From Chlorobiota bacterium (lineage in GTDB: Bacteria > Bacteroidota > Ignavibacteria > Kapaibacteriales > UBA961): DNA of 64,000 bases. Position 1 is the first letter of the stretch, and each line of letters begins with the position of its first letter. The stretch is from NCBI GenBank assembly GCA_014191195.1, contig BJGZ01000012.1:1-64000 (forward strand), given 5' to 3'. This document shows positions 2 through 12,861 of this stretch, piece after piece. The notes beneath the pieces were generated by a model. That model saw nothing but the letters and a program-made list of their open reading frames with translations, had not been told where the DNA came from and searched no databases. Position numbers and translations under genes: made by a program.

Positions 2-3000
2 ACAAATAGTAAAATCGCATCTGGTGTGATACCAACAACATTACCTCCAAGTGGTTCCGCGGGTGGCGATTTAGCAGGTAATTATCCGAATCCTATAATA
101 GGTACATCTGTAATTGGTACAAGCCAGTTAAAAGATAGCTCGATTACAAGTAGCAAAATTGCATCAGGAATTATTCCCACCACATTGCCACCAAGTGGTT
201 CTGCTGGTGGAGATTTGATAGGAAATTATCCAAATCCTACAATTAGTAATGGTGCTATAACAGGCCCAAAAATCGCATCTAATGCAATAACTTCATCAAA
301 AATATCACCAAGTTCAATTGGTACATCACAACTAAAAGATAGTTCGATTACAAGTAGTAAAATTGCATCAGGAGTGATTCCTACAACATTACCTCCAAGT
401 GGATCTGCGGTTGGAGATTTAGCAGGTAATTATCCGAATCCGACGATAGGTATCGGAGTTGTTACAGAATCCAAAATCGCATCTAATGCAATTACATCGT
501 CAAAAATATCAGCAAGTTCTGTTGGTACAAGCCAGTTAAAAGATAGTTCAATAACGATTGGAAAAATCGCATCAGGAATAATACCGACAACATTACCACC
601 AAGTGGTTCTGCTGGTGGCGATTTGATTGGGAATTATCCAAATCCGACGATTAGTACTTCAGTGATTGGTACATCACAACTAAAAGATAGCTCGATTACG
701 AGTAGTAAAATATCATCAGGGGTACTCCCAGTCTCATTGCCTCCAGAAGGGGTAGCTGGAGGCGATTTGACGGGAAATTATCCAAATCCGACGATTAGTA
801 ATGGAGTTGTTACTGAATCCAAAATCGCATCTAATGCAATTACATCGTCAAAAATATCAGCAAGTTCTGTTGGTACAAGCCAGTTAAAAGATAGTTCAAT
901 AACGATTGGAAAAATCGCATCAGGAATAATCCCGACAACATTACCACCAAGTGGTTCTGCTGGTGGCGATTTGACGGGAAATTATCCGAATCCGACGATT
1001 GGTACTTCAGTGATTGGTACATCACAACTAAAAGATAGCTCGATTACAAATAGTAAAATCGCATCAGGAGTTATTCCTACGACATTACCTCCAAGTGGTT
1101 TAGCTGGAGGCGATTTAATTGGTAATTATCCAAATCCTTCAATAGGTATATCTGTAATTGGTACAAGCCAGTTAAAAGATAGTTCTATAACGATTAGCAA
1201 AATCGCATCAGGAATAATACCTACGGCATTACCTCCAAGTGGTTCAGCGGGTGGAGATTTAGCAGGAAATTATCCGAATCCTATAATAGGTACATCTGTA
1301 ATTGGTACAAGTCAGATAAAAGATAGTTCAATAACGATTGGAAAAATAGCATCAGGTGTCATTCCTACAACATTACCTCCAAGTGGTTTAGCTGGAGGCG
1401 ATTTAATTGGTAATTATCCAAATCCTTCAATAGGTATATCTGTAATTGGTACAAGCCAGTTAAAAGATAGCTCGATTACAAATAGTAAAATCGCATCTGG
1501 TGTGATACCAACAACATTACCTCCAAGTGGTTCCGCGGGTGGCGATTTAGCAGGTAATTATCCGAATCCTATAATAGGTACATCTGTAATTGGTACAAGC
1601 CAGATAAAAGATAGTTCTATAACACTTTCAAAGTTATCATCAGGGGTACTCCCAGTCTCATTGCCTCCAGAAGGGGTAGCTGGAGGCGATTTGACGGGAA
1701 ATTACCCAAATCCGACGATTAGTAATGGAGTTGTTACTGAATCCAAAATCGCATCTAATGCAATTACATCGTCAAAAATATCAGCAAGTTCTGTTGGTAC
1801 AAGCCAGTTAAAAGATAGTTCAATAACGATTGGAAAAATCGCATCAGGAATAATCCCGACAACATTACCACCAAGTGGTTCTGCTGGTGGCGATTTGACG
1901 GGAAATTATCCGAATCCGACGATTGGGAATGGTGCTATAACTGGAAATAAAATTTCTCAAATGGGAGCAACTACTGGTCAAGTTTTAAAATGGCAAGGAA
2001 ATTATTGGCAATCTGGAAATGATATTACAGATAGTTTAAAGTTTTTGAAAGAAGATCGCAATATTGCTGTGCCAAATACAAGTAGGCCAGTTCATATATT
2101 ACAGCCAAAAGGTAATGAATCAACTGTAGATTTTGCAATAATGTCAAAAGGAAATGGAAGCATCATGATGTCCATTCCAGATAATACAACCTCTGGTGGA
2201 AATAAAAGAGGATATTCTAGCATAGATTTTCAGATGGGAAGAAATGCTGCTGATCAGGTTGCAAGTGGACTTTATTCTGCAATTATTGGCGGATATGGTA
2301 ATCGAGTTCAAGGAGAGTATGCAATAACTGCAGGAGGAAAATTAAATGTAGCTGATGGTAATTTTTCAGCATCAATAGGGGGATTTAATAATACCACAAT
2401 AGGTTCTAGTTCTGTAATTATCGGAGGGTCTGGAAATACAGTGACAGGTAATTATTCATTTATTATGGGATATAATAATATGGCTTCCGGAGCTTATTCA
2501 ACATGTATTGGTGGTAGTTCAAATCAAGCTCAATCAATGTTCGCTGCTACAATTGGAGGTTCAGGAAATACTGCATATGGAAAATCAAGTTTTACTGGAG
2601 GAGGTGCAGATAATTATGCATATGGTGCTAATAGCTCGATAACTGGTGGAATGAAAAATATGGTACTCTCTGAAAACTCTTCGATATTATCTGGAAGAGG
2701 CTTGACATTGCAAAACACGGCAAGTTATTCCATAGGAATGGTAGGAAATAATGCAAGTGGCAACAGAGATATGACATTATCAACACCAAATATAATGATG
2801 TTGGGAAATATTAGTTTATGGCTAACTAGCAATGATAGCACCGCAAAGGATATACGCTTTTTTGAGCCAAATTATAATATCAATTCATTTCCAGGCGCTT
2901 CTAATTATACTTCTATTAAGGCTGGACAACAATCAAATAATATTGAATATACTTTGCCTTTAACTGCAAGTAATAAAGCACATCAAATATTAACGGTTAA

Positions 3001-3295
3001 TACAAATGGTCAAATGAATTGGGGACAAGCCTTAATCACTCAATCTATTTCTAATGTAGATTGTGGGAATTTAGCAGCAAATGGAGGAACTGCATTTTGT
3101 GAAATCACTATTTCAAATGCTAATATTGGAGATATTGTGTCAGTTTCACCAAGATCAGATATGGAAAATGGAGTCATTATCGCTTCTTCAAGAGTGTCAG
3201 AAGCAAATATTATTAGAATCAAATTCGTAAATGCAACATCAACAGATATAAATCCCAATTCTATTACTTGTGATATTGTAGTAGTTCAACCTTAA
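2..3295 (+). CDS. Giant repetitive surface fibre / adhesin-like protein, 5' end missing
   Basis: The reading frame is open from the first complete codon, so the true start lies upstream of the window; the GTG at 26 only looks like a start because it encodes Val inside a repeat. Residues up to about 635 consist of twelve copies of a repeat with core LPPSGSAGGDLxGNYPNPT followed by GTSQLKDSSIT and SKIAS. After a linker, roughly residues 740-900 carry short IGGxxNxAxGxxS turns, the pattern of trimeric left-handed beta-roll heads as in YadA/Hia. No YadA-type membrane anchor or T9SS sorting tail is visible at the C-terminus, which ends in a beta-rich domain of about 80 residues. Proteins of this make-up are usually annotated as tail-fibre-like or adhesin-like in Bacteroidota. 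A surface-binding role is inference; the exact ligand and export route are unknown. Confidence 0.8.
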   Translation, partial: TNSKIASGVIPTTLPPSGSAGGDLAGNYPNPIIGTSVIGTSQLKDSSITSSKIASGIIPTTLPPSGSAGGDLIGNYPNPTISNGAITGPKIASNAITSSKISPSSIGTSQLKDSSITSSKIASGVIPTTLPPSGSAVGDLAGNYPNPTIGIGVVTESKIASNAITSSKISASSVGTSQLKDSSITIGKIASGIIPTTLPPSGSAGGDLIGNYPNPTISTSVIGTSQLKDSSITSSKISSGVLPVSLPPEGVAGGDLTGNYPNPTISNGVVTESKIASNAITSSKISASSVGTSQLKDSSITIGKIASGIIPTTLPPSGSAGGDLTGNYPNPTIGTSVIGTSQLKDSSITNSKIASGVIPTTLPPSGLAGGDLIGNYPNPSIGISVIGTSQLKDSSITISKIASGIIPTALPPSGSAGGDLAGNYPNPIIGTSVIGTSQIKDSSITIGKIASGVIPTTLPPSGLAGGDLIGNYPNPSIGISVIGTSQLKDSSITNSKIASGVIPTTLPPSGSAGGDLAGNYPNPIIGTSVIGTSQIKDSSITLSKLSSGVLPVSLPPEGVAGGDLTGNYPNPTISNGVVTESKIASNAITSSKISASSVGTSQLKDSSITIGKIASGIIPTTLPPSGSAGGDLTGNYPNPTIGNGAITGNKISQMGATTGQVLKWQGNYWQSGNDITDSLKFLKEDRNIAVPNTSRPVHILQPKGNESTVDFAIMSKGNGSIMMSIPDNTTSGGNKRGYSSIDFQMGRNAADQVASGLYSAIIGGYGNRVQGEYAITAGGKLNVADGNFSASIGGFNNTTIGSSSVIIGGSGNTVTGNYSFIMGYNNMASGAYSTCIGGSSNQAQSMFAATIGGSGNTAYGKSSFTGGGADNYAYGANSSITGGMKNMVLSENSSILSGRGLTLQNTASYSIGMVGNNASGNRDMTLSTPNIMMLGNISLWLTSNDSTAKDIRFFEPNYNINSFPGASNYTSIKAGQQSNNIEYTLPLTASNKAHQILTVNTNGQMNWGQALITQSISNVDCGNLAANGGTAFCEITISNANIGDIVSVSPRSDMENGVIIASSRVSEANIIRIKFVNATSTDINPNSITCDIVVVQP
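26..1930 (+). repeat. In-frame tandem coding repeats, 144 bp and 204 bp units
   Basis: Twelve units are visible. Seven complete units are 48 codons (144 bp) and four are 68 codons (204 bp); the extra 20 codons encode a second KIASNAITSSKIS module. All lengths are multiples of three. Some copies are almost identical at the DNA level: bases 1-127 match 1477-1603 exactly, and 711-1002 match 1635-1926 with one visible difference at 781/1705. This points to recent duplication or gene conversion within the gene. Confidence 0.9.
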
Positions 3296-3361
3296 CTATG
3301 TACGGTATTTGATTGCAAAGAAGACATTATCGCTGATACTTAAGTTACTTATTACATATAT

Positions 3362-3395
3362 AAAAAAAGGTGCTTCATATTTCTATGAGCACCTT
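3362..3395 (-). terminator. Rho-independent terminator of tRNA-His
   Basis: Read on the minus strand, an AGGTGCT..CAT / ATG..AGCACCT hairpin with one bulge begins directly after the tRNA 3' end and is followed by a run of seven T. Confidence 0.75.
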
Positions 3396-3396
3396 G

Positions 3397-3469
3397 GGCG
3401 AATGATGGGAATTGAACCCACGGCCAGCGGAACCACAAACCGCTGCTCTACCACTGAGCTACACTCGCC
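3397..3469 (-). tRNA. tRNA-His (GTG anticodon)
   Basis: The cloverleaf can be drawn on the minus strand: 7-bp acceptor stem (GCGAGTG with CATTCGC, one G-U pair), D arm GCTC/GAGC, anticodon loop TTGTGGT giving GTG, T arm GTGGG-TTCAATT-CCCAT. The histidine identity element G-1 paired with C73 is encoded. CCA is not encoded, so it must be added by a CCA-adding enzyme. The gene has its own promoter at 3505-3536 and terminator at 3362-3395, so it is a monocistronic unit. Confidence 0.95.
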
Positions 3470-3504
3470 ATTAATGTAAAGCAATTTGATTGCTGTTACA
3501 GTTA

Positions 3505-3536
3505 CAAAGATAGTATTTCAAGATTACTTATTCAAA
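3505..3536 (-). promoter_or_regulatory. Bacteroidota-type promoter of tRNA-His
   Basis: On the minus strand, TTTG (3533-3536) and TATCTTTG (3505-3512) are separated by 20 bp. This matches the known primary-sigma consensus of Bacteroidetes (TTTG near -33, TAnnTTTG near -7). The tRNA 5' end lies about 35 bp downstream. Confidence 0.7.
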
Positions 3537-3545
3537 AAAAAGTAC

Positions 3546-4949
3546 TCAAAATAAAGTATCTGTATTTTGTTGTGAATGAAGATGATGCTTTATATAAAGT
3601 TTAGTATCAAACTTAGATTTACACCCATTTGCGTTCATATATCTAATTTTTCCAAAGATTGGTCTTTCAAACCAAGCTCTGTCATGCACGCCACCAATAC
3701 TCCATGCTATTCCTGTATAGCCATTTGGATCTCTACCATCTAATTGATATGCATCATTTAAATAAATAGCAATTGATTGGGCTTCTTCAGGTGAATGTGT
3801 CCATTCAAGAATTTTTTTTGCCCAATACATTCGCATATAGCCATGCATTCTACCTGTGTATACTAATTCACATTGCGCAGCATTCCATAATTCATCATGC
3901 GTTTCAGCATTTTTAAATTGTTCTAAAGTATATAAATATTCTCTTTTATCGAAGCTATGAATTGAATGTGTTGTTTTTGCCCAATTAGGAAAGCCTTTGG
4001 AATCTGTATAACTGTCAGCATACAGACAATAATTATCAGCAAGCTCTTTTCTGACAATTAACTCTTCCAAAAAGGACAAAGACTGTTCGCTTTGAATGTC
4101 TTTTACTTCATATGCAATTCTTTGAGAAGAAATATTACCAACATGTAACCAAGGTGATAATCCAGAAACTGCTTTTGCATTTGGATCATTTCTTAAATGA
4201 TAAGTAGAGAGTGTATTCTTAACAAATAATGAAAAAGCTTCTTGAGCATGATATTCTCCGCCAGAAATTCCTAGAACCGGTTGAATATCAATATTAACTT
4301 TCAGCTGGGATTGAATTGCATCAAAATCTGTGAGGGGTGAATCGTGTAAAAAAGGGAAAGGATGAACAATTGGAGAGGGAATATCTACCAAGAATTCGTT
4401 CAAAACTCTTTTGATCTTTGGTCTTAAGGTATAAGCCCCAAATTCAACTTTTTGAGAAATAAATCTGGCAGGAACTATATTGTGACTATCTACTTCATAT
4501 ACGGGACATTCAACCATGGAAGCAACTTTCACCCTATTAAATACAGATTGTGATAATGGATCGAAATCAGTAAATATTGCGGCTGCATTATACTGCTGAG
4601 CAAAGGTGGAAATAGCTATTGAAGGCTCGTCACTTAGAACAGAAAAAAATGGAATATGTAAAGTATGAGCTTTTTGTTGGATCTCTTTCAGCCCATCTAA
4701 CATAAATGAATATTGTCTTAAACTTACTTCAAAACAATTAGGTACGATTGTACATACAATTACCAAGGGTAATTTATGTTGCAAAGCAGAATATTGAGCA
4801 CATAGTAATCCCCAATTATCTTGAATCCTTTGATCTCTACTCATCCAATACACTAAGCATGAGCCTTGATTATGTATAGCACAATAATCATCAGCTTGCT
4901 GAATATCACCATCTGCAGAAACTAAATAAATCCTTCGTGAATCAATCAT
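3546..4949 (-). CDS. phr: Class II CPD deoxyribodipyrimidine photolyase
   Basis: Light-dependent flavoenzyme that splits cyclobutane pyrimidine dimers in DNA. The N-terminal half is the photolyase alpha/beta domain beginning VYWMSRDQR, typical of class II enzymes. The C-terminal FAD domain carries the class II signature DGRDPNGY near residue 404 followed by WSIGGVHDRAWFERPIFGK and the RYMNANGC segment. Length, 467 residues, is normal for class II. It is the last gene of a minus-strand trio; the upstream secreted-protein gene ends 23 bp before it, so the genes are probably co-transcribed. No obvious light-responsive control element is seen. Confidence 0.93.
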   Translation of the reverse strand: MIDSRRIYLVSADGDIQQADDYCAIHNQGSCLVYWMSRDQRIQDNWGLLCAQYSALQHKLPLVIVCTIVPNCFEVSLRQYSFMLDGLKEIQQKAHTLHIPFFSVLSDEPSIAISTFAQQYNAAAIFTDFDPLSQSVFNRVKVASMVECPVYEVDSHNIVPARFISQKVEFGAYTLRPKIKRVLNEFLVDIPSPIVHPFPFLHDSPLTDFDAIQSQLKVNIDIQPVLGISGGEYHAQEAFSLFVKNTLSTYHLRNDPNAKAVSGLSPWLHVGNISSQRIAYEVKDIQSEQSLSFLEELIVRKELADNYCLYADSYTDSKGFPNWAKTTHSIHSFDKREYLYTLEQFKNAETHDELWNAAQCELVYTGRMHGYMRMYWAKKILEWTHSPEEAQSIAIYLNDAYQLDGRDPNGYTGIAWSIGGVHDRAWFERPIFGKIRYMNANGCKSKFDTKLYIKHHLHSQQNTDTLF

Positions 4950-4972
4950 ATTCTATTTAGAATTAAAAGTTA

Positions 4973-6001
4973 TCATTGCAACAATTTTTTGACTAAAGCT
5001 GAAGTGGTTTTTTTAAATGCCTCTAAGGTATCTTCACTTAAACCTGCCGTCAATTTCTTGATTTTTATCAAAGTACCATCTGGCTTTATTTGTTGTAAAG
5101 TCAGGCTGATATCTGCACCTTCTAATGTTTTTTTACATTTACCATTTATACAATAGGCAAATCCAACACTATATAACAAAGATAATTCTTCTTTATTTGG
5201 AAGATTGAAATTTTCTGTCCCCCTTAAACCTTTTAAAACATATACAGAATCTCTGGTAACTTGATCAATTGGTAAATACTTTTTCTGTTGTAAAGACGCT
5301 GCTTCAAAAAGGACTTCAAGGGCATAAAAAGAATTAACTTCTTTACCCTGAAAGATAGGCCAAAGTGATTTAATCTGTGTATCTTCTAATTGGAAACTAA
5401 TAAAACAAAGCGGTTCTGCTGGTGCTACTTGATACTCTGGAGACTCAGCTTTTTGATATAATAAAGAGTCACCTGTCACCTGACACATTGCCCTTTGTAT
5501 TGCCTCCACTAAAGTTGGATCATACACAATTGTACCAAGAGAATCTCTATATCGTAACATAGCCAAACCAATGCCACTTACAGATTGATTATAATCTTTG
5601 CCGGCTTTAGCAGAAATTTCTACTCTTAAAAGATTGCCTAACTTATCCACTCTTAAAAAAAATAAAGCTTCTGCTTTTAGCTGTTGTCCTACAGAAAAAG
5701 CAGTAGGGTCGATATTAGCATCTTTAAGTTTCTTAGCAATAGAATCACGTTCTTTTAGCGATACATATATAAATTTATCTGCTGCTCCTAATGCAATAGC
5801 CATTGCAGCATCGGTTTTACGGATAATCGAATTCGGAATATCTTTTCCATGTATTATTTCTGCAATCATAATACGTGCAAGTGTGGTATCCTTTTTTTGA
5901 GATCCGGGAGCTAAAGATTCTGTATGTATTTTTACAGTATCCTGCTTTGACATTGCAGGTACTATTATGATAAGTAAAAGAATAAATGTTAGTCTTAACA
6001 T
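4973..6001 (-). CDS. Secreted protein of unknown function
   Basis: I do not recognise a family with certainty. The start chosen at 6001 gives a clean signal peptide (MLRLTFILLLIIIVPAMS); an upstream ATG at 6049 would overlap the preceding gene by 11 bp and add 16 residues before it. The mature part opens with HTESLAPGSQKKDTTLARIM and has an alpha/beta segment (residues about 30-110 of the shorter form) with IYVSLKERDSIAKKL, loosely like TolB-like or CsgG-type periplasmic domains that assess protein amounts. The middle carries a Cys-containing beta-rich part. It sits between the HisA-like gene and the photolyase gene. A periplasmic or lipid-free exported location is the only supported statement. 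Confidence 0.7.
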   Translation of the reverse strand: MLRLTFILLLIIIVPAMSKQDTVKIHTESLAPGSQKKDTTLARIMIAEIIHGKDIPNSIIRKTDAAMAIALGAADKFIYVSLKERDSIAKKLKDANIDPTAFSVGQQLKAEALFFLRVDKLGNLLRVEISAKAGKDYNQSVSGIGLAMLRYRDSLGTIVYDPTLVEAIQRAMCQVTGDSLLYQKAESPEYQVAPAEPLCFISFQLEDTQIKSLWPIFQGKEVNSFYALEVLFEAASLQQKKYLPIDQVTRDSVYVLKGLRGTENFNLPNKEELSLLYSVGFAYCINGKCKKTLEGADISLTLQQIKPDGTLIKIKKLTAGLSEDTLEAFKKTTSALVKKLLQ

Positions 6002-6038
6002 GTATAATATTGAATTATGTATAAAAATCATTATCATC

Positions 6039-6809
6039 CTAAATTTCATTCGCTACAATTGATGGCTCTAATTTAGCTTCGATAGCTCTCCATATCCTTT
6101 GACAAGGAAAACGATTCTCGTATAAAGCTCTTCCAACTATTACAGAATCCAATCCAATGGAGGTTAACTGTTGTAAATCCCAAAGTTGTTTTGGCCCACC
6201 AACACCTCCCCCAACCGTTATTCTCATATTAGTAAGTGTTCCAATATTTTTTAAAACAGTAAAGTCAGGTCCTTTAAGAGACCCTTCCCATGCAATATCA
6301 GAATATACCATTCTTGTAATTCCAGCAGATTTTGCCAATTCTGCAAGTTCACTATCGGTAATATCTACTTCAATATCTGGAAACAGAGCTTTCCCTTGAT
6401 TGGACCTAATACCAATAACAACTCTGCTTGGTGTATATTTCTTAACAAGATTTTTTACACCTTCCAAATCAGATAGTAATACTTCATTTAAAATGATTCG
6501 ATATACACCATGTTCTAACCAAAATTCACATTGTTCAATTGTAGGGAAAGAAGATAATAATTGAATAGGTATATCTACAGATTTAACCATTTCTAAGATT
6601 GTATCAGTATTTGAAGTAGGATTATGCTCATCCATAGCATCATGATCTGTAATATGTAATGACTTAGCATTTTCTCTGCGCCATAAACGGGCTAATTCAT
6701 ATGGATGATTGGATATCTGAGAATAAAGAGATTCTGTACCAGGCAATCCTTGAATACATCGTTGACAATGGCCATGCTCTAAATCTATAGAGGGTATAAT
6801 GAGAATCAT
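6039..6809 (-). CDS. HisA-like TIM-barrel protein, catalytically divergent
   Basis: Homologue of phosphoribosylformimino-AICAR-ribotide isomerase (HisA, histidine biosynthesis step four). The start at 6809 (MILIIPSIDLEHG) matches HisA N-termini; an ATG at 6878 would add 23 unmatched residues. Using the shorter form, the catalytic Asp of the first strand is kept (D9), and the C-terminal phosphate loops are kept (GGG at 200-202, VGRALY at 225-230). However, the second catalytic Asp, found in strand five of HisA, aligns with Arg135; the GGGIR phosphate motif of the N-terminal half is replaced by LSSFP (85-89); and the TDI..DG motif reads SDIAWEG. No other his gene is nearby. It may be a repurposed paralogue rather than the working isomerase. 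Its 3' end overlaps or abuts the secreted-protein gene. Confidence 0.75.
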   Translation of the reverse strand: MILIIPSIDLEHGHCQRCIQGLPGTESLYSQISNHPYELARLWRRENAKSLHITDHDAMDEHNPTSNTDTILEMVKSVDIPIQLLSSFPTIEQCEFWLEHGVYRIILNEVLLSDLEGVKNLVKKYTPSRVVIGIRSNQGKALFPDIEVDITDSELAELAKSAGITRMVYSDIAWEGSLKGPDFTVLKNIGTLTNMRITVGGGVGGPKQLWDLQQLTSIGLDSVIVGRALYENRFPCQRIWRAIEAKLEPSIVANEI

Positions 6810-6957
6810 AATATTTGGTATAAGTAATTCAAGTATGGGTGTACAATGATTTATTACAAAATTACCAAGTTTCATCAATTCATACAGTACATGGTAATTT
6901 TATATTAGTATTTCATGTATTTTGCGCTCAGTTATTTATCATAATAAAGATAATTTT

Positions 6958-8088
6958 ATGAGTACACCTATCATTATACCTGTTACAAATAAAGCAGATA
7001 AATTACGCTTTATTAAATCACAATGGAATTTTTACAAAGGCGATAATTCCTTTGTTCCACCTATTATAATGGATAGGGAAAAATTATTAGACGAGAAAAA
7101 AAATCCATTTTATAAACATTCTGCTATTCAATTATTTCTTGCAGAGAAAAATGGACAAATCATTGGAAGAATAGCAGCAATAATTAATGATAATCATAAT
7201 ATTATCCATAATGATAATATCGGATTTTTTGGTTTTTTTGAGTGTGAAGATAATCAAGAAACAGCTAATGCATTGTTCCATGCAGCAGAAGAATGGCTTA
7301 AAAGCAAAGGGAAATCTGAGATTAGAGGTCCAGTAAATCCTAGTATGAATGATGAATGTGGATTACTGATAGACGGATTTGATTCTCCACCAGTAATTCT
7401 GATGACATATAATCCAAAGTATTATGAAAAATTAGTAGAAAATTATGGATTCGGTAAAGTTAAGGATCTACATGCCTATATATTAGATCAGAATACTTTT
7501 GTTTCTGATAAAATGCGCAGAACTGTCGAGATTATTAGGCAAAGATCACAAGTTACAATCAGAGAAGTAGATTTTAAGAATAAAGAAAACTTTAAAAGAG
7601 ATGTAAAAACTCTGAAAGAAATCTATAATGCTGCTTGGCAACCAAATTGGGGCTTTGTAAAAATGACTGATGAAGAATTTGATTTTCTTGCCGCAGACTT
7701 AAAACAAATTGCAGACCCAGTATATACATTAATAGCAGAAGTAAAAGGAAAAGTAGCTGGATTTGCATTAGCGATTCCAGATATAAATCAATCACTTATC
7801 CATAATAAGTCTGGTGGAATACTTGGTGCCGCTTGGCATTTACTCACCAAGAAAAAGAAAATCAATCTTTTAAGAATCATTGTACTTGGTGTATTACCTG
7901 AATACCAAAAAAACGGAGTAGATGCTGTATTGTACCAAGAGATAGGTTCCAGAGGTTTGCCCAGAGGAATACAGTATGGCGAGGCATCATGGATTTTAGA
8001 AGATAATGAACCAATGAAAAAGGCATTAACAACTACTATGCATGGAACTATTTATAAAACATATAGAATGTATCAAAAAACTCTTTAA
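6958..8088 (+). CDS. GNAT-superfamily N-acetyltransferase-like protein
   Basis: A conserved protein of about 376 residues, common in Bacteroidota-like genomes, with GNAT-type elements: FLAEKNGQIIGRIAAIIND near residues 57-75 of the preferred start, then a second acetyltransferase-like half with YTLIAEVKGKVAGFALAIPD and the V/A-LPEYQKNGVDAVLY segment that corresponds to the acetyl-CoA-binding turn. The substrate is unknown. I chose the ATG at 6958 because MSTPIIIPV begins the conserved region; the upstream ATG at 6922 adds 12 unlikely residues. It is transcribed divergently from the HisA-like gene, and a division gene follows 16 bp downstream. Confidence 0.75.
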   Translation: MSTPIIIPVTNKADKLRFIKSQWNFYKGDNSFVPPIIMDREKLLDEKKNPFYKHSAIQLFLAEKNGQIIGRIAAIINDNHNIIHNDNIGFFGFFECEDNQETANALFHAAEEWLKSKGKSEIRGPVNPSMNDECGLLIDGFDSPPVILMTYNPKYYEKLVENYGFGKVKDLHAYILDQNTFVSDKMRRTVEIIRQRSQVTIREVDFKNKENFKRDVKTLKEIYNAAWQPNWGFVKMTDEEFDFLAADLKQIADPVYTLIAEVKGKVAGFALAIPDINQSLIHNKSGGILGAAWHLLTKKKKINLLRIIVLGVLPEYQKNGVDAVLYQEIGSRGLPRGIQYGEASWILEDNEPMKKALTTTMHGTIYKTYRMYQKTL

Positions 8089-8581: not shown

Positions 8582-9742
8582 ATGAGTGTATTAGTAAATA
8601 AACACACCAAAGTAATTGTGCAAGGTATTACAGGTGCAGAAGGAACTTTCCACACTTCTCAGATGCTTAAATATGGCACCAATGTGGTTGCTGGAGTAAC
8701 ACCTGGTAAACAAGGATTATTGTATACAGGCAAAGGAGAAGATACTTTCTCTCGCGCTGTGCCAGTGTATAATACTGTAAGTGAAGCAGCTAAAGCGTCC
8801 GGAGCAAATGCAAGTATTATTTTTGTACCTGCAAATATGGCTGCTGATGCTGTCTTAGAAGCAATTGAAGCGGGCATCCCTCTTGTTGTTTGTATTACAG
8901 AGGGAATTCCTATTAGAGACATGATTAAAGTGAAAACTGCTTTAAATAATTCTCAAAGTAGATTAATTGGTCCTAATTGTCCAGGAATTATAACTCCTGG
9001 AGAATGTAAACTTGGAATTATGCCAGGTTTTATTCATCATAAAGGTACAGTTGGTGTAGTTTCAAGAAGTGGTACACTTACATATGAAGCGGTAAAACAA
9101 TTAACTGATGTTGGATTAGGACAATCAACTTGCATCGGTATTGGTGGTGATCCAATTATTGGAACTCAATTCATAGATGCAATTCAATTATTTAATGATG
9201 ATCCAGGAACTGAAGCTATCATAATGATTGGAGAGATTGGTGGAACAGCAGAAGAAGAAGCCGCAGAATATATTGGTACATATGTAAAGAAACCAGTGAT
9301 TGGATTTATTGCTGGTAGAACTGCACCTCCAGGAAGAAGAATGGGGCATGCAGGTGCTATTATTTCTGGTGGTAAAGGGACTGCAGGTGCTAAAGTTGAT
9401 GCAATGAGAGCAGCTGGCATATTGGTTGCTGATTCACCAGCTCATATTGGACGCTCTGTTGCAGAGGCTTTAGGAGTTAAGGCATCTAAAGGTTCTAAGA
9501 AATCTGTTAAGTTTTCGGCAAAAGACATCAAAATTTTAAAGATCAAGACGGGTGCCAAAACAAAAAAAATTGACTTGAACAGCAAAGATATGTCTGCAAG
9601 CGAAGGCCCCCAAAAAAGGGGTAGAAAACCTGGTACTAAAAATAAGCCAGGTTATCTTAAGCCCCCAGGGCGCCCTAAAAGTATTGTAGAAAAGCCAGAA
9701 AAAGTAGCTGGAAAACGTGGTAGACCCAAAAAACAAGCATAA
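8582..9742 (+). CDS. sucD: Succinate-CoA ligase alpha subunit with basic AT-hook-like tail
   Basis: TCA-cycle enzyme subunit: makes succinate and ATP or GTP from succinyl-CoA together with SucC. Residues 1-300 are a complete SucD: CoA-binding Rossmann domain ([20 protein letters not shown]), then the ligase domain with the phosphohistidine at H256 in [10 protein letters not shown]. Normal SucD ends near residue 290-300; here the same frame continues 86 residues. The extension is Lys/Arg/Pro/Gly-rich with KRGRK (345-349), GRPK (363-366) and a terminal KRGRPKK (378-384), which is a canonical AT-hook core. No frameshift is visible at the junction (about 9482). sucC is not adjacent; ndk follows 38 bp downstream. 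A TAnnTTTG box lies at 8534-8541 but without a well-spaced TTTG. Confidence 0.95.
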
Positions 9743-10289: not shown

Positions 10290-10820
10290 ATGATAAAAGA
10301 TTATAAAAGACTAACATCTGAGATTTTACATGAAAATCCATATTGGTCTTATATGCATGATACATATTCATTACAAGATAATCAGCATAAAGCAGATTAC
10401 TTTTATGTGAATTCGTTAGGTTCTACAATCATAATCCCATGTATTGATGAACAACATTTTGTTCTTGTACATCAATACAGATATCTGAATCAAAAATATA
10501 GTCTTGAATTTCCTGGTGGTGGAATTCCACAAGGAGTACTACCGCAACAAAATGCAAGTAAAGAATTAAACGAAGAAACCGGATATGTAGCCGAATATAT
10601 GGAACATATTGGTACCTTTAATCCGTATAAAGGGGTAACAAATGAACTGTGCTATGTTTTTGTAGCTAAAAATTTACAAGCATATTCATCTGATCCCGAA
10701 AAAACTGAAGATATTCGCACAACAATATTACATCGAGATGAAATCGTACATGCAATTAAGAAAGGTGAAATATGGGATGGTATGACATTAGCTGCATGGA
10801 CATTATTCTTTCAATTATAA
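10290..10820 (+). CDS. Nudix hydrolase, ADP-ribose pyrophosphatase-like
   Basis: Hydrolyses a nucleoside diphosphate linked to another moiety. The fold signature is clear: VHQYRYLNQKYSLEFPGGG then the Nudix box with ASKELNEETGY, followed by YKGVTNELCYVFVA as in ADP-ribose and nucleotide-sugar hydrolases. The box is imperfect: the conserved Glu six residues after the first Gly is Val, and the Arg before EL is Lys; the two metal-binding Glu (NEET) are retained. It is the first gene of a run of eight closely spaced genes to 18558. The next gene starts 2 bp after its stop. Confidence 0.85.
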   Translation: MIKDYKRLTSEILHENPYWSYMHDTYSLQDNQHKADYFYVNSLGSTIIIPCIDEQHFVLVHQYRYLNQKYSLEFPGGGIPQGVLPQQNASKELNEETGYVAEYMEHIGTFNPYKGVTNELCYVFVAKNLQAYSSDPEKTEDIRTTILHRDEIVHAIKKGEIWDGMTLAAWTLFFQL

Positions 10821-10822
10821 AA

Positions 10823-11827
10823 ATGGATAGTATGATCAACAAATCTGTTATTGTGGCTTCTTTGATGTTAAGTAGTTTTTTGAGTACAATGTATGCTCAA
10901 CAAAGTGCAAAAGGAACAAAAGAACCTGAATTGAAATATGCACTTAGAGTTGATTTTAAGCAAGGAGTATATTCATCTTATAAAATGGATGAAAAAACAA
11001 AAGTTCAAAGATTATACAGAGATAGTATAACCAAGAACTATCAAAGAATTCTTAGCTATAACTTTACACAATCTCCAAAATCACCTGATGATGAAACTTT
11101 GCCTTTGATTACAAATATTGATTCAATGAAATATGCTTTTAAAGAAGGCCCCACAGAGCTTATTTACGATTCACAAAATCCCAAAGCGGCAACTGTTAAT
11201 ACAGAGTTTCCTGATGCAATATCCAATATGGGCTTATTAAATCATCAATTTGCATTGATGTATAATCCAAAAACTGAAGTAGTAAAAGTAGATGGAGTAG
11301 ATCAGCCAGGCGATATAAAATGGCTAAGAAATTATATTAATGAAGATAATGGGGAAGCCTTAGATACTGCTCAGAAATTCACATGGTTACATGCAATAGC
11401 CGATGAGCAAGCAATATATATTGGTGATGTATCTAAATCATTGATTGCTGGTAAAATGGTGATATCTCCAGATTCTGTATGGAAAAGACCAATTAGATTG
11501 CGATTAGATGGAATTGATTGCTTCGATACTGTTGAAATCAGAGTAATATCTTATGCAAAGGGTGAGTATGTATTAGAAGCAATTTCAAAAGCATTAACTC
11601 CTGATTATAGCCATGATGCCAGATTTTTTGGTGTTCCAGCGCCAGTACAAATAAAAACAGGGAAAGGAACTGGAAAAATACTTTTAGAAATTTCTTCCTC
11701 CGGGTGGGTGAGAAAGGTTGCTTTTGATTATAATATAGAGATAGAATCTCTGTATAAAAGAGAGCCTTTTACACAAAAAATAGAAACTAATTCAGTGTGG
11801 ACATTATTAGGACGTTACAAATGGTAA
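10823..11827 (+). CDS. Exported beta-rich protein of unknown function
   Basis: The start at 10823 follows the Nudix stop directly and gives a signal peptide (MDSMINKSVIVASLMLSSFL, cleavage after YA before QQ). An upstream ATG at 10772 would run deep into the Nudix gene. The mature part is beta-strand-rich without a recognised domain. It looks like a distant relative of the next gene: both have G-x-x-SSYK followed by KV-Q/E-R and a later W-K/S-R element. Reading overlap with the next gene is 7 bp. Possibly periplasmic or surface-associated. Confidence 0.75.
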   Translation: MDSMINKSVIVASLMLSSFLSTMYAQQSAKGTKEPELKYALRVDFKQGVYSSYKMDEKTKVQRLYRDSITKNYQRILSYNFTQSPKSPDDETLPLITNIDSMKYAFKEGPTELIYDSQNPKAATVNTEFPDAISNMGLLNHQFALMYNPKTEVVKVDGVDQPGDIKWLRNYINEDNGEALDTAQKFTWLHAIADEQAIYIGDVSKSLIAGKMVISPDSVWKRPIRLRLDGIDCFDTVEIRVISYAKGEYVLEAISKALTPDYSHDARFFGVPAPVQIKTGKGTGKILLEISSSGWVRKVAFDYNIEIESLYKREPFTQKIETNSVWTLLGRYKW

Positions 11828-12861
11828 AGCAATCATTCGGGATAGGGATTATCGTATTATTAGTAATTGCAGGTTTGATAGAATCATGTTCTGATACAAA
11901 AAAAAGTGATGTAAAAGAATTTGTTCCGTATACAATCGAAAATGTAAAAGTTGCTCCAAAAGCAGAAGGCATTTCTATTAAAAGTTTATACTATGCTCCA
12001 AAAGTTGGAGATAAAAGTAGTTATAAACTAGTGCAAATAAGTAAAGTAGAAAGAAATTCTGTGCAAATGGAACAATCAATTACACAATATTATACCAAAT
12101 CTATATTATCAATTAAACCTGATTCTAGCATAGAAATGAGTGTAAAAATAGATTCAATGAGAATTTCTGAAAAAGGTCCCGATCAAGCCCAACCTGGGAA
12201 AACAGTATCCTTGCAATTTAATTCAGAAGATAGCGCCTCAAAAGGTAAACCTGAATATAAGCAGTACTATGCAATTGTAGGAGCTCAAGTACAAATACTT
12301 GCAAGTAAATTAGGTCGTATCGAAGAAATTATAGGATTAACACCAATCATAAATGCAATTCTTGGAAGTAAAAAAGACTCAGTACCTGATAAGTTAAAAG
12401 AAAATTTAGCGCAACAAATAAAGACACAATTTTTTCAATTACCATTACAACAAGAATTTCAAACCTATCCCGAAAAAGGAATTTTAGATGTCTCTAAAAA
12501 ATGGAGTAGAATTGATGTTTTACCTATGTCTGGAATATTAACTGTTAAGAATACAGTCAATTATACAATGGGTTCAATTAAAGAAATGAATGGTAAAAAA
12601 GTAGCTATTGTAGATGCTAATTTGACAGCTGAAATTTCGAAATCAAAAGAAATGCCTAAAGGATTACAGTTTACTTTGAATGATTCCAAATTTGAAGGCA
12701 AAGGTATTACCATAGTAGATGTTCAAACTGGCTCAACCCTCTATAAGAAAAACGAAGTATTTACAATGATCTCTGCTACAATGAAAGAATTAGCTTCAGG
12801 AATAATCCAAGCAGTATCACAAAAAATACAAACTACAGTTACAGTAGAATTACTTCACTAA
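11821..12861 (+). CDS. Putative lipoprotein, DUF6263-like
   Basis: The ATG at 11821 overlaps the previous stop (ATGGTAA), a coupled arrangement; an ATG at 11797 lies further inside the upstream gene. MVKQSFGIGIIVLLVIAGL leads into IESC, a plausible but imperfect lipobox with the Cys near residue 23. The mature part opens YYAPKVGDKSSYKLVQISK and is beta-rich, resembling the DUF6263-type proteins of Bacteroidota (similarity judged by eye). Role unknown. Tandem position and shared motif with the previous gene suggest an old duplication. Confidence 0.7.
   Translation: MVKQSFGIGIIVLLVIAGLIESCSDTKKSDVKEFVPYTIENVKVAPKAEGISIKSLYYAPKVGDKSSYKLVQISKVERNSVQMEQSITQYYTKSILSIKPDSSIEMSVKIDSMRISEKGPDQAQPGKTVSLQFNSEDSASKGKPEYKQYYAIVGAQVQILASKLGRIEEIIGLTPIINAILGSKKDSVPDKLKENLAQQIKTQFFQLPLQQEFQTYPEKGILDVSKKWSRIDVLPMSGILTVKNTVNYTMGSIKEMNGKKVAIVDANLTAEISKSKEMPKGLQFTLNDSKFEGKGITIVDVQTGSTLYKKNEVFTMISATMKELASGIIQAVSQKIQTTVTVELLH

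What the first reader, a model, noticed from the sequence alone, without database searches (positions are those of the whole stretch)
6039..6809. HisA-like protein without second catalytic Asp and N-half phosphate loop
Seen: catalytic Asp9 kept, but the second catalytic Asp aligns by eye with Arg135, the GGGIR loop with LSSFP, and TDIxxDG with SDIAWEG. C-terminal phosphate loops are intact. Known: HisA needs both Asp residues. Inference: a repurposed paralogue, operonic with photolyase and not with his genes.
Basis: partly seen in the sequence, partly recalled or inferred. Interest (0 to 1): 0.5.

Follow-up and report, generated by a model that had tools for sequence, protein, structure and literature searches.

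The report
Repurposed HisA kept without histidine pathway
This bacterium appears to have lost the genes for making histidine but keeps, under strong selection, a descendant of one histidine enzyme whose catalytic residues have changed, which suggests that the protein now does a different, still unknown job.

Summary
The gene (window 6809-6039, minus strand, 256 aa) encodes a HisA-fold protein that keeps D9 and the C-terminal phosphate loops but has R135, LSSFP and E175 where HisA has an active-site Asp, GGGIR and the catalytic Asp of TDIxxDG. The genome (rated 100% complete) shows no hisD, hisF, trpF, trpC or second HisA: an orphan in a predicted histidine auxotroph, not a paralogue beside a canonical HisA. 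Yet it is a conserved lineage: 88 of 123 genomes of the order carry it, 84 of them without hisD, and in 10 of 10 hisD-positive Ignavibacteria tested it coexists with a separate canonical hisA-hisF pair. It groups with the HisA that Rhodothermales use in histidine synthesis. Of 73 aligned relatives 71 lack at least one of the two catalytic Asp, but all 73 keep RxEN and NxFxCQxxWRxxE. Conservation has shifted from the catalytic face to the opposite face and helix 8; dN/dS in the genus is about 0.05. Best reading: a repurposed, non-HisA protein, probably a phospho-ligand-binding scaffold or regulator with an unknown partner; a new enzymatic activity remains a strong rival in the window's own branch.

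The parts
6039..6809 (-). HisA-like CDS, 256 aa plus stop, ATG at 6809
   Evidence: purifying selection
6783..6785 (-). codon of D9, first catalytic Asp, kept
6663..6680 (-). RRENAK (residues 44-49), end of helix 1 to start of strand 2; R44, E46, N47 in 73 of 73 relatives
6543..6560 (-). LLSSFP (residues 84-89) in place of the GGGIR distal-phosphate loop
6405..6407 (-). codon of R135, position of HisA D129 / PriA D130
6282..6302 (-). SDIAWEG (residues 170-176) in place of TDIxxDG; E175 replaces the second catalytic Asp
   Evidence: residue roles from PMC5404923 and PMC9088769
6195..6212 (-). GGGVGG (residues 200-205), C-terminal phosphate loop of strand 7, kept
6114..6137 (-). VGRALYEN (residues 225-232), phosphate loop of strand 8, kept
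6078..6116 (-). NRFPCQRIWRAIE (residues 232-244), helix 8 signature NxFxCQxxWRxxE
   Evidence: 73 of 73 rows; 40 of 40 fetched loci
4973..6049 (-). 358-aa ORF without Pfam or NCBIfam match, overlapping the HisA-like gene by 11 nt
   Evidence: conserved in 4 of 4 close loci
3546..4949 (-). deoxyribodipyrimidine photolyase-like (TIGR00591, 541.7 bits against a cut-off of 550.05)
6922..8088 (+). divergent GNAT-like acetyltransferase gene

Best explanation
The protein descends from the ProFAR isomerase HisA, has lost that reaction and is kept for another role. Shown here: no hisD or hisF in the genome; a lineage kept across Ignavibacteria and Kapabacteria whether or not histidine is made; the catalytic Asp pair broken in 71 of 73 aligned members, in different ways per clade; RxEN on the barrel face opposite to the active site, and NxFxCQxxWRxxE in helix 8, invariant in 73 of 73. 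Inferred: the selected job is carried by that bottom/helix-8 surface, i.e. binding a protein partner, as a scaffold or regulator. In the window's own branch the intact C-terminal phosphate loops probably still bind a small mono-phosphorylated ligand, which may be the signal. The surface began to form while the protein was still an active HisA, since catalytically intact Rhodothermales HisA already has N47 and FPCQxxW.
For: Own genome: one full-length PF00977 match, no PF00815, PF00697 or PF00218, with controls ringing in 14, 13, 14 and 14 of 14. 88 of 123 genomes of the order have it (98 matches minus the 10 f8 genomes hit only at canonical HisA/HisF level); hisD in 14 of 123. All 10 hisD+ Ignavibacteria have a separate adjacent hisA-hisF pair besides it, and those 10 HisA keep D9, GGG, D135 and the DG of TDxxxDG, with Gly at 47 and no helix-8 motif. 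Tree: HisA-like plus Rhodothermales HisA is one clade (99*; 100*). Conservation of catalytic face / opposite face: 0.789/0.556 in 13 canonical HisA, 0.492/0.620 in 18 f7 members, with helix 8 at 0.789. dN/dS 0.049 for the window gene, 0.071-0.126 in three f7 pairs.
Against: No partner identified; neighbours differ by clade. In f1 and f3-6,9 the replacements are themselves nearly fixed (R135 24 of 27, E175 26 of 27) and both phosphate loops are kept in 27 of 27, which fits a new active site at least as well. Two Ignavibacteria members (L050, L052) still have both catalytic Asp. The invariant patch could be an internal clamp of helix 8; no coordinates were available to measure exposure. Several lineages have lost the gene, so it is dispensable there. 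T9SS, the one partner system tested by profile, does not track it.
Confidence: 0.5

Rival explanations
1. A new enzyme: the barrel catalyses another reaction on a mono-phosphorylated sugar or ribotide with a rebuilt site (D9, R135, E175); only family f7 later lost it.
For: R135 in 24 of 27 and E175 in 26 of 27 of f1 + f3-6,9, phosphate loops in 27 of 27, D171 in 7 of 7 of f1; single HisA substitutions at D129, D176 or G79 switch its reaction to TrpF (PMC7591586, passages).
Against: D9 is Glu in 8 of 20 of f3-6,9; active-site residues differ between Ignavibacteria groups A, B, C and Kapabacteria while the bottom/helix-8 residues do not; f7 keeps the gene under selection with the site gone.
Confidence: 0.32
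2. It is still a ProFAR isomerase, working on imported or leaked intermediate or with an undetected pathway.
For: Fold, D9 and C-terminal phosphate loops kept.
Against: hisD and hisF not found in a genome rated 100% complete; D129, D176 and the R83 loop positions all changed.
Confidence: 0.04
3. It is a PRA isomerase (TrpF), like SubTrpF after loss of the distal phosphate site.
For: trpF absent; loss of R83 and changes at D129/D176 favour TrpF activity in HisA/PriA (PMC5404923; PMC7591586, passages).
Against: trpC absent too, so no tryptophan pathway to serve; 99.2 bits against the TIGR01919 cut-off of 306.45.
Confidence: 0.03
4. A relic on the way to loss, without a selected function.
For: Stepwise erosion in f7, a 204-aa remnant in g40, absence in g27, g29, g39, g43.
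Against: dN/dS 0.049 for the window gene, 0.026-0.067 in three other f1 pairs, 0.071-0.126 in f7; 73 of 73 invariant signature residues.
Confidence: 0.06

Closest known systems
HisA of Rhodothermota and Chlorobi (long HisA with a C-terminal addition; PMC8305728, passages)
   Same: One clade with it in the tree (Rhodothermales rows only, no Chlorobiaceae HisA was tested); N47 in 10 of 11 and C236, Q237, W240 in 11 of 11 Rhodothermales rows, R44 in 11 of 11.
   Different: Rhodothermales keep the catalytic pair (10 of 11) and the GG loop (11 of 11), have hisD in 7 of 7 genomes and hisF adjacent in 5 of 7. They have Gln for E46 (11 of 11), Cys or Ser for R241 (11 of 11) and E244 in only 2 of 11.
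PriA, SubHisA2 and SubTrpF of Actinomycetota (PMC5404923, passages)
   Same: A HisA relative that changed after his and trp genes were lost; SubTrpF also lost the distal-phosphate Arg; nearest solved fold is PriA.
   Different: SubTrpF still serves a tryptophan step and keeps an isomerase activity; here trpC and trpF are both absent, and the best-kept surface is away from the active site.
HisF and HisF2-type proteins (HisF, WbuZ, AglZ)
   Same: Same PF00977 superfamily and barrel.
   Different: 38.2, 44.5 and 51.1 bits against cut-offs of 294.55, 299.7 and 310; no hisF in the genome.

Membership tests
HisA (ProFAR isomerase, TIGR00007 equivalog) | score over the curated cut-off 228.95 | tested here: not met
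   134.4 bits. For scale: two Rhodothermales 267.1 and 272.3; three Ignavibacteria members 224.7, 226.0, 229.0; canonical Kapabacteria HisA 250.4
HisA (ProFAR isomerase, TIGR00007 equivalog) | (beta/alpha)8 barrel of the HisA/HisF kind | tested here: met
   AlphaFold2 pLDDT 94; 2y85 Z 28.0, 5a5w Z 27.1
HisA (ProFAR isomerase, TIGR00007 equivalog) | both catalytic Asp (D7/D9 and D169/D175/D176) | tested here: not met
   D9 kept, second is E175; 13 of 13 canonical rows have both
HisA (ProFAR isomerase, TIGR00007 equivalog) | GGGxR loop for the distal phosphate | tested here: not met
   LLSSFP; at least two Gly in 13 of 13 canonical rows
HisA (ProFAR isomerase, TIGR00007 equivalog) | C-terminal phosphate loops | tested here: met
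   GG201-202 and GR226-227
HisA (ProFAR isomerase, TIGR00007 equivalog) | works in a histidine pathway | tested here: not met
   no hisD and no hisF found in the own genome
HisA (ProFAR isomerase, TIGR00007 equivalog) | ProFAR isomerase activity | not testable with these tools
   needs an assay or complementation
PriA / SubTrpF | score over TIGR01919 cut-off 306.45 | tested here: not met
   99.2 bits
PriA / SubTrpF | tryptophan pathway present without trpF | tested here: not met
   trpF and trpC both not found
HisF, WbuZ, AglZ-HisF2 | curated NCBIfam cut-offs | tested here: not met
   38.2 of 294.55, 44.5 of 299.7, 51.1 of 310 bits

The most novel reading that the evidence does not exclude
A large, so far undescribed family of HisA-derived pseudoenzymes: the HisA of the Rhodothermales-Ignavibacteria-Kapabacteria stem gained a second, non-catalytic job on its barrel bottom and helix 8 while still an active enzyme. 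When the his pathway was lost, or replaced by another hisA-hisF set, that second job alone kept the gene, and the catalytic face decayed step by step (window family, then f7, then a 204-aa remnant, then loss).
Probability: 0.42. Interest if true: 0.7.

Novelty: new variant of a known kind. Interest (0 to 1): 0.52.

Why it matters
It offers a natural series from active enzyme through catalytically altered relatives to a truncated remnant, with the lost pathway known, so one can test whether a moonlighting role precedes and outlives catalysis. It also warns annotators: three Ignavibacteria members tested score 224.7, 226.0 and 229.0 against the HisA cut-off of 228.95. The one that passes (L060) comes from a genome in which no hisD was found.

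Tried and rejected
Type IX secretion as partner system: a PorZ-like gene lies within three genes in 5 of 5 Ignavi_B loci, so I searched SprA_N over the order. It is in 119 of 123 genomes (it rings in 0 of the 14 controls), including the HisA-like-free groups f2, f10, g27, g29 and g39, so T9SS presence does not explain where the gene is kept or lost.

RuvA as partner: ruvA is immediately upstream on the same strand in 41 of 46 distinct Kapabacteria loci outside f1, but in 0 of 10 f1 loci and in no Ignavibacteria or Rhodothermales locus. In the g27, g29, g39, g43, f2, f8 and f10 genomes where ruvA was found, no HisA-like gene follows it. I keep it as old synteny, not as evidence of interaction. 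Four HisA-like-free genomes (G040, G044, G079, G083) also show no ruvA, so their lack may be an assembly gap; so does G112 of f8.

TrpF reading: put low because trpC is missing too.

Promoter/terminator scan of 3300-7100: 15 promoter-like sites against 19.7 expected from shuffles, no terminator against 1.3 expected; not informative.

Literature: no held paper had all of HisA + Ignavibacteria + histidine, HISN3 + moonlighting, HisA + pseudoenzyme, Kapabacteria + 'amino acid biosynthesis'. A search on any two of Kapabacteria, auxotroph, histidine listed 15 papers, none with the word Kapabacteria. led to PMC8305728. I found no description of this family in the papers held; closed papers and preprints were not searched.

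Full report
What is there. The gene lies at 6039-6809 on the minus strand (256 aa, ATG at 6809). It matches Pfam His_biosynth at 2.1e-40 but scores 134.4 bits against the 228.95 cut-off of the HisA equivalog TIGR00007. AlphaFold2 with a 50-row alignment gives a complete barrel (mean pLDDT 94). The nearest solved structures are PriA/HisA (2y85 Z 28.0, 223 residues at 2.2 A; 5a5w Z 27.1, 218 residues at 2.0 A). In 47 of the 50 rows listed the alignment ends at model residue 237-240, so most of the last helix (235-255) has no counterpart in them. The closest named relative is a Candidatus Kapaibacterium MAG (L030, 96% identity).

The residues. Against HisA of other phyla (8 rows) and canonical HisA of the same order (5 rows), the window protein keeps D9 and the two C-terminal phosphate loops. 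It has R135 where 13 of 13 have Asp, LSS where 12 of 13 have GGG (the other has SGG), and E175 where 13 of 13 have Asp. In the passages I read, the catalytic residues of a PriA are Asp9 and Asp169 (PMC5404923), and the catalytic Asp is D176 in Salmonella HisA and D175 in M. tuberculosis PriA, with D129/D130 a further active-site residue and R83/R85 gripping the distal phosphate (PMC9088769). So the true partner changed from Asp to Glu (E175), and R135 is a second, separate change.

The genome. PF00977 finds one full-length match in the own genome, this gene, plus a partial match in a 344-aa frame on contig 5. Histidinol dehydrogenase, TrpF and TrpC were not found, while the same searches ring in 13, 14 and 14 of 14 control genomes. 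The genome is rated 100% complete. The organism is therefore a predicted auxotroph for histidine and tryptophan with an orphan HisA relative.

The lineage. Over 123 genomes of the order, hisD is found in 14. A profile of the HisA-like family (A3) matches 98. Ten of these, all of family f8, are hit only at the level of canonical HisA/HisF (76 bits or less), leaving 88, contig-edge fragments and remnants included. Four of the 88 have a hisD match (G022, G024, G052, and G082 with a partial one in a genome of 7% contamination), so 84 of 109 genomes without hisD carry the gene. G022, G024 and G052 have canonical PF00977 matches at 216-261 bits and hisD, as well as the HisA-like gene. Of 25 Ignavibacteria genomes reached through loci, 10 have hisD and 15 do not; all 25 have the HisA-like gene, by which they were found. 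All 10 with hisD have a separate adjacent hisA-hisF pair, in 9 of 10 on the same contig as hisD (G142 is the exception). Those ten HisA keep D9, GGG, D135 and the DG of TDxxxDG (one has TN for TD), carry Gly at position 47, lack the helix-8 motif, and in 8 of 10 run 238-242 residues from the aligned start (252 and 257 in the others). Of the 15 without hisD none shows such an adjacent pair; G134 and G147 have further full-length PF00977 matches that I did not identify. The 7 Rhodothermales genomes all have hisD, and in 5 of 7 the HisA of this clade lies next to hisF.

Descent. In a 102-row tree (IQ-TREE quick search, SH-aLRT support only) the Kapabacteria HisA-like proteins (45 rows, 100*) and those of Ignavibacteria join Rhodothermales HisA in one clade (99*), apart from HisA of other phyla. 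Canonical HisA of his-positive Kapabacteria group with Bacteroides and Parabacteroides HisA (97*). Adding the ten canonical Ignavibacteria HisA and leaving f7 out keeps HisA-like plus Rhodothermales (66 rows) on one side of a 100* branch. This agrees with, and extends, PMC8305728 (passages). That paper reported a C-terminal addition shared by Chlorobi and Rhodothermota HisA and inferred that the short HisA of Ignavibacterium album and Melioribacter roseus was acquired by transfer. What I add is that, in the Ignavibacteria genomes examined, the long HisA lineage was not lost but persists in altered form.

What is lost and what is kept. Both catalytic Asp are present in 10 of 11 Rhodothermales rows (L069 has Glu at 175 and 135) but in only 2 of 73 HisA-like rows (L050 and L052). 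The pair breaks in different ways: D9 is Glu in 10 of 12 Ignavi_A; D175 is Val in 5 of 5 Ignavi_B, Asn in 11 of 11 Ignavi_C, and Glu in 26 of 27 Kapabacteria outside f7; in f7 D9 is Asp in 4 of 18 and D175 in 1 of 18 (group names are mine, f and g codes the tool's). In f7 the phosphate loops go too: GG in 3 of 18, G plus R/K in 6 of 18. By contrast R44, E46, N47, N232, F234, C236, Q237, W240, R241 and E244 are identical in 73 of 73, and 40 of 40 loci fetched keep NxFxCQxxWRxxE. Mean conservation of the catalytic (top) face against the bottom face is 0.911/0.810 in 11 Rhodothermales, 0.789/0.556 in 13 canonical HisA, 0.712/0.711 in 28 Ignavibacteria, 0.657/0.700 in 27 Kapabacteria outside f7, and 0.492/0.620 in f7. 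Helix 8 stands at 0.776-0.806 in the last three sets; in the 13 canonical rows only 2 of its columns could be scored (faces defined from the model's strands). N47 and C236/Q237/W240 are already in catalytically intact Rhodothermales HisA (10 and 11 of 11), whereas E46 and R241 are not (Q46 in 11 of 11; C241 in 10 and S241 in 1).

Selection and decay. My Nei-Gojobori dN/dS is 0.049 between the window gene and its nearest relative and 0.026-0.067 in three other f1 pairs (a fourth had saturated dS). It is 0.071-0.126 in three f7 pairs and 0.21 for a 204-aa gene in genus g40. That gene sits directly after ruvA (L184, L185), matches no NCBIfam model, and keeps an IPxIxL start, REENNK and, at its end, QLLWRIAE or QLLCRIAE, with the Cys gone. 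In g27, g29, g39 and g43 genomes the gene after ruvA is something else and no HisA-like match exists (G092, G102 and three f10 genomes are inferred from the unlisted remainder).

Neighbours. The window order (divergent GNAT, HisA-like, 358-aa ORF, photolyase) recurs in 4 of 4 close loci and in 0 of 3 loci of other genera. Elsewhere: ruvA immediately upstream in 41 of 46 distinct Kapabacteria loci outside f1; a cyclic-nucleotide-binding-like protein immediately next in 23 of 24 Ignavi_C loci, with a UspA-like gene within three genes in 24 of 24; a pfkB-type kinase within three genes in 13 and purE in 5 of 16 Ignavi_A loci; a PorZ-like propeller within three genes in 5 of 5 Ignavi_B loci; hisF in 5 and hisH in 4 of 14 Rhodothermales loci. 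The PorZ-like, NuoG-like and GNAT names come from Pfam, ruvA from PF01330 in the genomes; the others are my reading of the sequences.

How it most likely works. Shown: absence of the HisA setting, loss of the catalytic pair, retention under selection, an invariant non-catalytic signature. Inferred: RxEN (end of helix 1) and WRxxE (helix 8) meet at the bottom of the barrel, because helices 1 and 8 are neighbours in this fold (recalled) and E46 and R241 appear together; this surface binds a partner; in the window's branch a mono-phosphate bound at strands 7-8 may regulate it. The main rival is a new enzyme using D9, R135 and E175, which the near-fixed replacements in f1 and f3-6,9 favour and the f7 data disfavour for the family as a whole. 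I put the scaffold/regulator reading at 0.5 and the new-enzyme reading at 0.32. That it no longer serves as ProFAR isomerase in a histidine pathway here is very likely on pathway and residue grounds, but untested at the bench.

Known context. Change of a retained HisA relative after his/trp gene loss is known for PriA (SubHisA2, SubTrpF; PMC5404923, passages). Single HisA substitutions at D129, D176 or G79 switch its reaction (PMC7591586, passages). Missing histidine biosynthesis in related FCB lineages is in print for Candidatus Kryptonia (PMC4737851, passages) and suspected for Candidatus Thermonerobacter (PMC6338057, passages). I found no description of this HisA-like family in the papers held.

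Noticed in passing
window 8582-9742 (+): Succinyl-CoA ligase alpha-like protein (PF00549, PF02629) with a tail of 100 residues after the last Pfam match that holds three AT-hook-like stretches (RGRKPG, PGRPK, RGRPKK; motif name recalled).
   Followed up: partly
window 26-3295 (+): 1089-aa protein with DUF5907 repeats (5 stretches), encoded by tandem DNA repeats with periods of 144 to 432 bases.
   Followed up: partly
L184 2094-2705 and L185 (genus g40): A 204-aa gene directly after ruvA looks like a HisA-like protein that lost about 50 residues of the barrel; no NCBIfam match, dN/dS about 0.21.
   Followed up: partly
L060, L066, L082 (Ignavibacteria): HisA-like proteins score 229.0, 226.0 and 224.7 against the TIGR00007 cut-off of 228.95; L060 and L066 come from genomes without a hisD match, so an automatic hisA label would mislead.
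   Followed up: yes
Ignavi_C loci, e.g. L082 7992-9800: The HisA-like gene is followed by a cyclic-nucleotide-binding-like gene (23 of 24 loci) and a UspA-like gene (within three genes in 24 of 24), a possible signalling cluster (names read by eye).
   Followed up: no
window 11797-12861 (+): 354-aa protein with a DUF6263 match (1.8e-10), next to a similar-sized 351-aa ORF (10772-11827) without a significant Pfam match.
   Followed up: no
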